Assembly: GCA_003168375.1 (NCBI GenBank)
Contig: PMSI01000001.1
Location: 744,001-808,000 of the forward strand
Source: Vulcanimicrobiota bacterium
Lineage (GTDB): Bacteria; Vulcanimicrobiota; Vulcanimicrobiia; Vulcanimicrobiales; Vulcanimicrobiaceae
Direction: 5' to 3'
Length of the DNA stretch: 64,000 nucleotides
Under the pieces are notes generated by a model. The model searched no databases, was not told the origin of the DNA, and saw only the letters and a program-made list of their open reading frames with translations. This document shows, piece after piece, positions 29,233 through 32,351 of the stretch. Position 1 is the stretch's first letter; each line of letters opens with the position of its first letter. Position numbers and translations under genes: made by a program.

Positions 29233-29262
29233 TTGACGAGGACGACGGCGGCGCGGTAGAAT
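29233..29262 (+). promoter_or_regulatory. Sigma70-type promoter of the MarR gene
   Basis: TTGACG (29233-29238) and TAGAAT (29257-29262) with an 18-base spacer. The GTG start codon is only 5 bases after the -10 box, so the transcript would start at or next to the start codon and be leaderless. Confidence 0.6.
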
Positions 29263-29267
29263 AGTTC

Positions 29268-29723
29268 GTGACGAACGATCTCGACGAGACGACCGCCGAC
29301 GTCGCACGTCTGTATCCCGCCGTCTATCATCGCTTCCACGTCTCGAAGCACCGGCTTCCGGGCACCGACGTCACCCCGCGCATGCTGTGGATCTTGCAGC
29401 ACATCGCGTCGGTCGGACCGTCGACGCTCGGCGAACTCGCCGATGCATCGGGCGCGAAAAAATCGACGACGACCGAGCTCGTCGACCGGCTCGAAGCGAA
29501 AGGCTACGTGGGACGGATGCGCGACGAACGTGACGCACGCCGGGTGTTCGTCGGACTGACGCCGCAGGGCGAACGGCGCGCCGGACGCGCGCCGAGCGTT
29601 CTGGCGGACGACGCGTTGCGCGCCGCGCTTGCGCGCATGACGACGAACGAACGCGCCGCGCTCGTTCGCGGACTTCGCGCGCTCGTGCGCGCCGGTGAGG
29701 TGACCCGAGATGACCACGTGTGA
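29268..29723 (+). CDS. MarR family transcription regulator
   Basis: Winged-helix repressor of 151 residues: LWILQHIASVGPSTLGELAD leads into the recognition helix GAKKSTTTELVDRLEAKGYV and the wing RDERDARRVFVGLTPQGE. The ligand is unknown. No ribosome site; the start follows the -10 box directly, so leaderless translation from GTG is likely. The stop lies inside the next gene, so they are co-transcribed. Confidence 0.88.
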   Translation: MTNDLDETTADVARLYPAVYHRFHVSKHRLPGTDVTPRMLWILQHIASVGPSTLGELADASGAKKSTTTELVDRLEAKGYVGRMRDERDARRVFVGLTPQGERRAGRAPSVLADDALRAALARMTTNERAALVRGLRALVRAGEVTRDDHV

Positions 29724-29967: not shown

Positions 29968-30380
29968 GTGGGGCGCGAGGCGCGCTGCACCGCGTCGTGG
30001 GGCACGCGCAGCGGCGCGGTGACGGTCCATCTCGATGCGACCGAACTGACGGTACGCGGCGCGTTTCGCGCGAGCGCACCGCTGGCATCACTGCGCGACC
30101 GCGCGCCGACGGCGACGCGCTTCGTTTCCGCACGGGGGCCCACGAGGTCGCGCTGATCCTCGGCCCGGCCACGCCGCGCTGGGCCGCCGCGATCGCGAAG
30201 CCGCCCCCGACGCTGGCCGCCAAGCTCGGTATCGCCGCCGGGACGCGCGTCCTCACCCTCGGCACGATCGACGACGACGGCCTGGCGGCGGCGCTCGCGA
30301 CCGGGACGAGCTCGCGCGCATCGCTTCCAGCCACGGGACGCTGCTTGAGCGGCGCGTCCCGCTGTGGGTCGTCTACACCA
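29968..30380 (+). pseudogene. DUF3052-like gene, 5' part, two frameshifts, cut by IS
   Basis: Reading starts at GTG 29968 right after the zinc-ribbon stop. Three frames must be joined: CTASWGTRSGAVTVHLDA...LASLRD up to about 30103; ADGDALRFRTGAHEVALILG...AAKLGIAAGTRVLTLG...AAALAT to about 30298; then DRDELARIASSHGTLLERRV and PLWVVYT. Both shifts have the same sign, as two 1-base losses would give. The LGI-x-GTRV and LWVVY parts resemble DUF3052-type proteins. The sequence then meets the insertion element; the missing C terminus is found at 31838-31971. Confidence 0.7.
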
Positions 30381-30480
30381 TTCGTCGTGAGCGTGGTCAG
30401 GCCGCATCGTGCTGCCTGCCCCGAGCGATGCCCGGTGCACTCATGGGCGGCGACTCCGCCCGCAGGAGAATGACCTGAGC
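30381..30480 (-). ncRNA. Candidate omegaRNA (reRNA) at the tnpB 3' end
   Basis: TnpB guides usually overlap the 3' end of tnpB and run to the element end. Here two stems lie there: GCATCG/CGATGC (30404-30409 with 30426-30431) and GGGCGG/CCGCCC (30445-30450 with 30456-30461). The guide would begin just beyond the element end, within the broken DUF3052-like gene. Position is by analogy only. Confidence 0.3.
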
Positions 30481-31695
30481 TGCATTCACGTCCGCGTCGG
30501 CCTCATGGCCACAGCGAACGCAGGCAAATAACGGCCCCTCCCGGCTTTCCTTGCAGACCTGCCCGCACGCGGCACACGTCTGCGAACTGTATCTGGCATC
30601 GACCTCGATCACCGTGCGAGCAGCGTACTCTGCTTTTTCGCGGATCAAGGTCGCCAGTTTTCCGAACCCGGCGTCCAAGAGCGCCCGATTCAACCCCGCC
30701 TTCGCTCGCACTCCAACGCCGGGCTGCTCCGGCGTCCCTTTCGCGCTTCGCGTCATCGAACGCAGCCGCAGCGCCTCCAGGGCGATCCGGTCGAACCGCT
30801 GCACGATCATCCGGCTGACCTTGTGCAGCCAATCGTGGCGTGCATTCGCCTCGCGCTCTTTGGCTCGAGCGAGCCGACGCACTGCAGCGATGCGACCAGG
30901 GTCCTTCGTGTTGAGCGGTCTACCGATCGCGTCCTTGACGGTGACCGCCTCGAGGGCGCGCTGGTGCCGTTCGACCACCGCCTTGCGGCGCGAACCGGGC
31001 CGCAGGTTCTCTATCGTCGTGCCATCGGAGAGCGCGGCCAGGACCCGGATGCCGCGGTCGACCCCGACGCTGGACCCGCTGGCCGGCAAGGGCGAAGGCA
31101 GCCGATGCCCCTCGAAGACCGCATACCAGCGGCCATTCTTTGTCACCAGAAAGACGCGTCCGAACTCCGGTACAATCCGCCCCTTCCGCAGCCGCACACT
31201 GCCGACACCCGGCACCTTGACCCGCATGTGTGCCGGGTCGAGCTTGAGCGCGCGGTCGCCGTGCGGATACTCCAACTGGTTCCAGCGGCTAGCGGGCTTG
31301 AAGCGCGGATATCCCGGCTCCTCGCCGCGTTTGAGCCGCCGGAAGAACGCGGCGAAGGACAGATCCAAGCGGTGCAGGACCGCGTCCTGGCACTCGCGAT
31401 AGACGGCTGCGAAGCGCGGCTCGGCTTCGCGCAATTCGGTGAGCTGCGTGTACTGTTCGCGGCTCGGCATCGAGACGCGGCGCGTCGTCCAGGCGTCACG
31501 GCGCTGCTGGAGCAATGCGTTGTAGAGCTCGCGAGTACCGCGCAGCATGGTGACCAGCGCGCGTTCTTGCGCGCAGGTCGGATAGAGCCGGACTTTGTGC
31601 AACCACCGGAGTTGACCGTCGAAGCGCGATGCCACGAGGCCATCCTCCCGCGGCGCTGTGCCAACGTCATGGCACCACCGGGCACCGACGCTCAC
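30397..31695 (-). CDS. tnpB: TnpB RNA-guided nuclease of the IS element
   Basis: Protein of 432 residues. RuvC-like acidic residues are all present: D213 in GVDRGIRVLA, E307 in IALEALRLRS and D400/D402 in EADADVNAAQ. The zinc ribbon has C374, C377, C392 and C395. N-terminal part WLHKVRLYPTCAQERALV is the usual TnpB/IS1341 start. So the protein looks intact and may still cleave DNA with a reRNA/omegaRNA. GTG 31695 gives the longest form; GTG 31632 is an option. Confidence 0.88.
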   Translation of the reverse strand: MSVGARWCHDVGTAPREDGLVASRFDGQLRWLHKVRLYPTCAQERALVTMLRGTRELYNALLQQRRDAWTTRRVSMPSREQYTQLTELREAEPRFAAVYRECQDAVLHRLDLSFAAFFRRLKRGEEPGYPRFKPASRWNQLEYPHGDRALKLDPAHMRVKVPGVGSVRLRKGRIVPEFGRVFLVTKNGRWYAVFEGHRLPSPLPASGSSVGVDRGIRVLAALSDGTTIENLRPGSRRKAVVERHQRALEAVTVKDAIGRPLNTKDPGRIAAVRRLARAKEREANARHDWLHKVSRMIVQRFDRIALEALRLRSMTRSAKGTPEQPGVGVRAKAGLNRALLDAGFGKLATLIREKAEYAARTVIEVDARYSSQTCAACGQVCKESREGPLFACVRCGHEADADVNAAQVILLRAESPPMSAPGIARGRQHDAA

Positions 31696-31837
31696 CGCAT
31701 TGCATTTGACGGCCCCGACGCGCCACGCGCTGCGTTATACTCCGCGACTGCTCGCCCCCGCGCCTGATCGTCGAATTGCGCGTGGACCCGCGGTCGAAGA
31801 ACCGTCGCCGTCCAGGCGCCTTGAGCTATCGCTCATC

Positions 31838-31971
31838 AGGGAAAAGGCGCGCCGCTCGGCGAGACCGCGGTCCGGGCGATGCTGCGCGACCGGGGGCTCA
31901 TCGACCTGAAGGTGGCCTCGGTCTCCCCGACGTTGACCGCGCTCCAGTTCGCGCGCAGGCTGACGCGCTAG
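31838..31971 (+). pseudogene. DUF3052-like gene, 3' fragment beyond the IS
   Basis: Frame GKGAPLGETAVRAMLRDRG then LIDLKVASVSPTLTALQFAR and stop at 31969-31971. The KGAPLGE...GLIDLKVASVS...TALxF pattern is the C terminus of DUF3052-type proteins and fits exactly as the end of the protein that breaks off at LWVVYT near 30378. No start codon or ribosome site of its own. Confidence 0.7.
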
Positions 31972-32024
31972 AACCGCTGCGTGCGCCGAGGACGCCGGAC
32001 GGCCGCTCGGGAACCCCGGGTCGG

Positions 32025-32336
32025 GTGGAACGGCAGCAGGGAGAGGTTCGAATCTTGATCCGCGGGATCGCGAAGGGTGTCGCAAGCACCGAGATCGCGG
32101 TGCTGCTGGCTCCGTTCGGGGGCGACCCCGAGCGCATCGCGCTTCCGCGCGATCGCCGTACCCGGCGGCGCAAGGGGATCGCCTACGTGTTCGTCCCCAG
32201 CCCGCACGCCGCGCGCGCCGCGATCGAAGCGCTGAGCAACTCGACGCTCCAGGAGAAGCAGATCACGCTCGAGCTGGCCGACGAGCGCCCGCCCAAAAAA
32301 CCGCGCCGCTTCAGCGGCCCTCCGCGGCGCTTCTAG
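32025..32336 (+). CDS. RRM-domain RNA-binding protein
   Basis: Protein of 103 residues. One RNA recognition motif: RNP2 [11 protein letters not shown] at the start and RNP1 [11 protein letters not shown] in the middle, followed by [20 protein letters not shown] and a basic Pro-rich tail ([17 protein letters not shown]). It resembles small bacterial RNA-binding RRM proteins with a C-terminal basic extension. GTG 32025 is the best start because later TTG 32055 would cut the first strand; the upstream frame is not coding-like. Confidence 0.75.
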
Positions 32337-32351
32337 ACGTCCGCCAGCGCC

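What the first reader, a model, noticed from the sequence alone, without database searches (positions are those of the whole stretch)
29968..31971. TnpB element splits a DUF3052-like gene that also has two frameshifts
The protein breaks off at LWVVYT near 30378 and continues as GKGAPLGETAVRAMLRDRG at 31840, with the tnpB element between. Joining the halves gives a sensible C terminus, so the insertion point is visible. Two extra same-sign shifts near 30103 and 30298 show that the gene has decayed since, while tnpB itself is intact.
Basis: seen in the sequence. Interest (0 to 1): 0.6.

Follow-up and report, generated by a model that had tools for sequence, protein, structure and literature searches.

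The report
Jumping gene in a decayed gene
A small mobile element carrying an intact RNA-guided nuclease gene (tnpB) sits inside a broken gene of unknown function in an uncultured WPS-2 (Eremiobacterota) bacterium. A sister species has the same insertion at the same base, other relatives have the gene uninterrupted, and overall this is an ordinary, well-dated transposon insertion.

Summary
The insertion is real. The element is 1,457 bp (30381-31837, minus strand). Joining 30380 to 31838 restores the reading frame of uninterrupted relatives (LWVVYT-K-GKGAPLGE) with no target duplication. A second copy in this genome has an exact empty site in the sister species, which confirms the ends independently. 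The sister (G004, about 93% DNA identity nearby) carries the same insertion at the same base, so it is most simply ancestral. The host gene is a remote DUF3052 relative (profile-profile probability 98.9%; no Pfam match above cut-off). The "shift" near 30298 is really a 55-58 nt deletion shared with the sister; only the 1-nt loss near 30101 is private to this genome. TnpB starts at 31635 (412 aa), has its catalytic residues and is under purifying selection. Its predicted guide matches the intact allele of relatives over 19-27 nt. No TnpA was found above cut-off in this genome. Unexpected: 437 bp spanning the gene remnant and the element's right end have no substitutions against the sister, while flanks differ by 5-13%; recombination is likelier than constraint, and a chimeric sister contig is not excluded. 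New member of a known kind (tnpB-only IS200/IS605-type element); modest interest.

The parts
29968..30380 (+). 5' part of the interrupted DUF3052-like gene; upstream half of the empty site, ends ...CTACACCA
   Evidence: Homologous to G001/G002/G005/G006/G007 uninterrupted proteins; profile match to DUF3052
30100..30102 (+). 1-nt loss relative to G004, private to this genome; first frame change
   Evidence: Alignment to G004
30293..30303 (+). scar of a 55-58 nt deletion (not a simple shift), shared with sister species G004; second frame change. Position approximate (alignment-dependent)
   Evidence: DNA alignment with G001, G002, G005, G007
30381..31837 (-). whole tnpB element, 1457 bp, ends GATGAGC...CTCACGACGAA, no target duplication
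   Evidence: Boundary shared by most copies; empty sites
30397..31635 (-). tnpB CDS, GTG start at 31635, 412 aa; guided_TnpB family, Cas12f1-like TNB domain, RuvC D/E/D present
   Evidence: stops at codons 7 and 16 of the longer ORF in other copies place the real start downstream
30381..30510 (-). predicted 3' part of the guide RNA scaffold (reRNA/omega RNA), with a hairpin at 30445-30461 invariant in 13 copies
   Evidence: Alignment and fold of 13 copies; no Rfam match; expression not tested
30361..30380 (-). predicted guide segment TGGTGTAGACGACCCACAGC, antisense to the LWVVYT codons of the broken gene
   Evidence: Right-end flank; by analogy with ISDra2 reRNA (PMC8612924)
31822..31835 (-). 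left-end palindrome TGAGC-GATA-GCTCA
   Evidence: Same arms, with variants, in most copies that keep the left end
31838..31841 (-). target motif next to the left end (CCCT on the minus strand); consensus CCNN over ten sites
   Evidence: C at -3 in 10/10 and at -4 in 8/10 sites
31838..31972 (+). 3' part of the interrupted gene, begins AGGGAAAAGGC...
   Evidence: Joined alignment with relatives
30074..30510 (.). 437-bp tract with no substitutions against sister species G004; neighbours differ by 8-13%
   Evidence: longest other run in roughly 17 kb aligned between the two species is 150

Best explanation
A tnpB-only element of the IS200/IS605 kind inserted precisely, without target duplication, next to a CC-containing motif inside an accessory DUF3052-like gene, in the common ancestor of this species and sister G004. 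The gene was lost and decayed further. The element kept a functional-looking TnpB and a guide-RNA right end. By the established ISDra2 mechanism, the 3' end of its guide RNA reads into the flanking gene, so TnpB would cut the uninterrupted allele next to the target motif and thereby oppose loss of the element. The transposase that moved it was probably supplied in trans and was not found in this genome. Shown: ends, empty sites, shared insertion, intact ORF, purifying selection, guide match to relatives. Inferred: nuclease activity, the RNA, trans mobilisation.
For: Five copies in this genome. Common ends across copies. Uninterrupted gene in five same-genus relatives. Same insertion, same base, in G004, with left-side sequence diverged at ordinary levels (31580-31837 10.5%, 31838-32340 8.4%), so it is old. 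Exact empty site in G004 for the copy at G000:C7: 1700|1701 contiguous around a 1454-bp element. TnpB: NCBIfam guided_TnpB 219 bits, IS200_TnpB 137 vs IS607_TnpB 91 bits; Pfam OrfB_IS605, Cas12f1-like_TNB; solved relatives with aligned D, E, D. dN/dS 0.12-0.22 against ten other copies and the G004 ortholog. Guide identical over 27 nt to the intact G001 allele and 19 nt in G007. No Y1 TnpA in own genome, controls ring.
Against: No TnpA was found, so transposition of this family is inferred from an empty site, not from a known enzyme. Right-end fold has little covariation (3 of 58 pairs with two-sided changes), because copies are about 90% identical and the region overlaps coding sequence. The target motif is weak (two positions). 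The G004 alleles come from a metagenome bin of 410 contigs.
Confidence: 0.88

Rival explanations
1. The element inserted independently at the same site in the two species (site-specific or guide-directed re-insertion), rather than once in their ancestor.
For: TnpB-type elements have a target motif, and the guide matches the intact allele of relatives.
Against: The element's left 258 bp and the left-side flank are diverged by about as much as the rest of the region; the two copies are closer to each other than to any other sampled copy over most of their length.
Confidence: 0.07
2. The right part of the element and its right flank were exchanged recently between the two lineages by homologous recombination, and the shared deletion travelled with that tract instead of being inherited. 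This adds to the best explanation and does not exclude it.
For: No substitutions over 30074-30510 (Fisher p about 5e-12 against flanks), a second 312-bp identical stretch 30910-31221; no run over 150 in roughly 17 kb of other aligned sequence. The same remnant is only about 76% identical to G007, so it is not a deeply constrained region.
Against: The left end and left-side flank are not part of the tract, so the insertion itself need not have moved. A chimeric contig in the metagenome bin G004 would look the same.
Confidence: 0.5
3. The frame changes are assembly errors and the gene was intact apart from the element.
For: The 1-nt loss lies in a CG-rich context and is the only difference in a 437-bp otherwise identical tract.
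Against: The second change is a 55-58 nt deletion seen in two assemblies. In the other genes of roughly 20 kb aligned to G004 no isolated uncompensated 1-nt indel was seen. Errors would not remove the element.
Confidence: 0.08
4. The element belongs to the IS607 family (serine transposase) rather than IS200/IS605.
For: No Y1 TnpA in the genome; IS607 elements, from general knowledge, also insert without long target duplications.
Against: IS607 TnpA model gives only sub-threshold hits to other serine recombinases, one a broken resolvase-like gene. TnpB scores higher with the IS200 model than with the IS607 model; a left-end palindrome is present.
Confidence: 0.12

Closest known systems
ISDra2 TnpB-reRNA (Deinococcus radiodurans, IS200/IS605; PMC8612924)
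   Same: TnpB with RuvC D/E/D, guide RNA expected from the element's right end with the guide taken from flanking DNA, insertion without target duplication 3' of a short motif, palindrome at the left end
   Different: No tnpA in the element, and none found in the genome; target motif CCNN instead of TTGAT; activity not shown
IS1341-type (tnpB-only) elements (PMC9956272, PMC8612924)
   Same: Isolated tnpB with conserved ends and no transposase gene, multiple copies
   Different: Here one copy (G000:C7) has an exact empty site in a sister species, so mobility, or precise loss, after species split is visible
IS200/605 gene-drive model (PMC11870625)
   Same: Guide records the insertion site and would target element-free alleles
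   Different: Only the guide-target match is seen here, on a chromosome; no drive shown
DUF3052 (PF11253)
   Same: C-terminal ~118 residues align at 98.9% hhalign probability
   Different: Extra ~80-residue N-terminal part; below Pfam's cut-off

Membership tests
RNA-guided TnpB (NF040570) | Profile match over curated cut-off | tested here: met
   219.4 bits against cut-off 100, residues 34-412 of the longer ORF
RNA-guided TnpB (NF040570) | RuvC catalytic D, E, D and zinc-finger cysteines | tested here: met
   GVDRG, ALEAL, DADVNAA and CxxC...CxxC aligned with the solved relative 9j09
RNA-guided TnpB (NF040570) | Guided DNA cleavage | not testable with these tools
   Needs a cleavage assay
IS200/IS605 (tnpB-only, IS1341-like) | Insertion without target duplication, fixed ends | tested here: met
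   Two empty sites
IS200/IS605 (tnpB-only, IS1341-like) | Short conserved target motif next to the left end | tested here: met
   CCNN: C at -3 in 10/10, at -4 in 8/10; weak but consistent
IS200/IS605 (tnpB-only, IS1341-like) | Subterminal palindromes at both ends | tested here: inconclusive
   Left end yes; right end folds as RNA but no clear terminal DNA palindrome was identified
IS200/IS605 (tnpB-only, IS1341-like) | Mobilised by a Y1 TnpA (in cis or trans) | tested here: inconclusive
   No Y1_Tnp in own genome or in G004; one in the genus, in G007, which has no copy of this element. A tnpB-only element needs none of its own, and a transposase acting in the past would leave no trace; placement rests on TnpB and the ends
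IS607 | Serine-recombinase TnpA | tested here: not met
   Only sub-threshold hits, 39 bits against cut-off 110
DUF3052 (PF11253) | Pfam gathering score | tested here: not met
   Best 17.7 bits against 22.7; remote homology by hhalign only

The most novel reading that the evidence does not exclude
A tnpB-only family with no transposase found in its genomes still moves precisely (one copy absent by a clean empty site in a sister species), and the substitution-free tract across its right end and guide region reflects repair or exchange promoted by the nuclease itself, i.e. TnpB-driven gene conversion between closely related chromosomes.
Probability: 0.05. Interest if true: 0.6.

Novelty: new member of a known kind. 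Interest (0 to 1): 0.27.

Why it matters
It gives a well-dated tnpB insertion in a little-studied phylum: exact ends, two empty sites, a sister species with the same insertion, and a predicted guide that still matches the intact allele of other species. That makes the idea that TnpB guards or spreads its own insertion testable on natural sequences. The element itself behaves as known TnpB elements do.

Tried and rejected
Rfam gave no match to the element at gathering or permissive thresholds, so no known guide-RNA family was assigned. The internal TGA/TAG reported for the G004 and other copies first looked like tnpB decay; they lie at codons 7 and 16 of an over-long ORF, upstream of the real GTG start, so those copies are not broken by them. 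A repressor-type (nuclease-dead) TnpB was considered and rejected because D, E and D are present. Nuclease-driven homing as the cause of the shared insertion was rejected because the left end and left flank have ordinary divergence. The joined site of the copy in G001 (L037) does not align cleanly to G000/G004 (6-nt gap), so it was not used as an empty site. A genome-collection scan found only G004 records. No paper on TnpB in Eremiobacterota was found in the held library.

Full report
What was checked. The window lies in a 4.43-Mb, 7-contig genome (G000, 97% complete) of the WPS-2 / Eremiobacterota kind; the organism name comes from the record title of the sister genome G004, an uncultured candidate division WPS-2 bacterium. 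The tnpB ORF occurs five times in this genome at 83-100% protein identity.

Element ends. Aligning all copies in the genus gives a shared block from GATGAGC to CTCACGACGAA, i.e. window 30381-31837 on the minus strand, 1,457 bp. Joining 30380 to 31838 gives TAC ACC AAG GGA AAA GGC (Y T K G K G), in register with the uninterrupted gene in G001, G002, G005 and G007; G006 also has it uninterrupted. There is no target duplication. Independently, the copy at G000:C7 (L033 3373-4826) is absent from G004, where the two flanks are directly adjacent (L066 1700|1701). This confirms the ends and shows that the family moved, or left precisely, after the two species split.

The interrupted gene. The N-terminal part, the middle and the C-terminal part match one 189-201 aa protein in relatives. 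Pfam does not call it DUF3052 above cut-off, but a profile of six homologues aligns with two true DUF3052 proteins of the same class at 98.9% probability over 118 columns. The gene looks accessory: no match in several same-genus genomes, and an independent frame change occurs in G007, which has no element. The change near 30101 is a 1-nt loss absent from G004. The change near 30298 is a 55-58 nt deletion common to this genome and G004. G004 has also lost 12 nt near the C terminus, so both remnants are decaying separately.

Same insertion in a sister species. G004 contig C109 carries the element at the same base. On the element's left side, divergence is ordinary: 10.5% in the first 258 bp of the element and 8.4% in the next 503 bp of flank. 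The simplest reading is one insertion in the common ancestor.

An unexpected mosaic. From 30074 to 30510 there is not one substitution between the two species, and again none from 30910 to 31221, while flanks differ by 5-13%. A run of 437 was not reached in 20,000 uniform redistributions of the differences, and in roughly 17 kb of other aligned sequence the longest run is 150. The same stretch is not unusually conserved in G007, which argues against functional constraint. Between the two identical stretches, 30511-30909 has 33 differences from G004, and there this copy shares a 152-bp identical run (30731-30882) with the copy at G000:C2. That pattern fits ectopic gene conversion between copies in this genome plus exchange between lineages. 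A chimeric contig in the metagenome bin G004 remains possible. Because the shared deletion lies inside the identical tract, its sharing may come from exchange and not from descent.

TnpB. The real start is the GTG at 31635, since other copies have stops at codons 7 and 16 of the longer ORF. The 412-aa protein matches the guided-TnpB model (219 bits) and, less well, the IS200 and IS607 TnpB models (137 and 91 bits). The catalytic D, E and D align with a solved relative. Against other copies and the G004 ortholog dN/dS is 0.12-0.22, so the reading frame has been kept by selection while the host gene decayed.

How it most likely works. In ISDra2 the guide RNA comes from the right end and its last ~16 nt from the flanking DNA; TnpB cuts the element-free site next to the motif, and repair can restore the element (PMC8612924). 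Here the corresponding flank reads TGGTGTAGACGACCCACAGC, antisense to the codons for LWVVYT, and is identical for 27 nt in the intact allele of G001 and 19 nt in G007, each next to CCCT. Over ten sites the base at -3 is always C and at -4 is C in eight. The right-end 130 nt contain a hairpin invariant in 13 copies. These steps are inference by analogy; no RNA or cleavage was measured. No Y1 transposase was found in this genome, although controls ring, and none in G004; the IS607 model gives only weak hits to other recombinases. The element is therefore best described as tnpB-only, working like the IS200/IS605 kind, with its transposase supplied in trans or lost.

Verdict. The gene name holds as remote homology, one of the two shifts is a deletion, and the order of decay is shown only for the private 1-nt loss. 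The feature is a new member of a known kind.

Noticed in passing
window 30074-30510 and 30910-31221: Substitution-free tracts against sister genome G004 with abrupt edges; recombination, or a chimeric G004 contig.
   Followed up: partly
window 30731-30882 against L002 (G000:C2:85252-89544): 152-bp identical run shared with another tnpB copy in the same genome where the G004 ortholog differs; looks like gene conversion between copies.
   Followed up: partly
L050 (G004:C215:11323-14808): A copy with about 510 bp missing from the middle of tnpB but both ends and the guide-RNA region kept (97% identical right end): possibly an RNA-only derivative.
   Followed up: no
L002 and L041 right flanks: Two copies lie just upstream of what read by eye as mutL (G000) and mutS (G001).
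   Followed up: no
window 29257-29637: About 381 bp, most of the MarR-family gene (29268-29723), is absent from G004, immediately upstream of the interrupted gene.
   Followed up: no
L030 (G007:C292:4800-9000): The uninterrupted DUF3052-like gene of G007 has its own frame change near residue 40.
   Followed up: no
L057 (G007:C73:2885-3166): Only Y1 transposase found in the genus, in a genome without this tnpB family.
   Followed up: no
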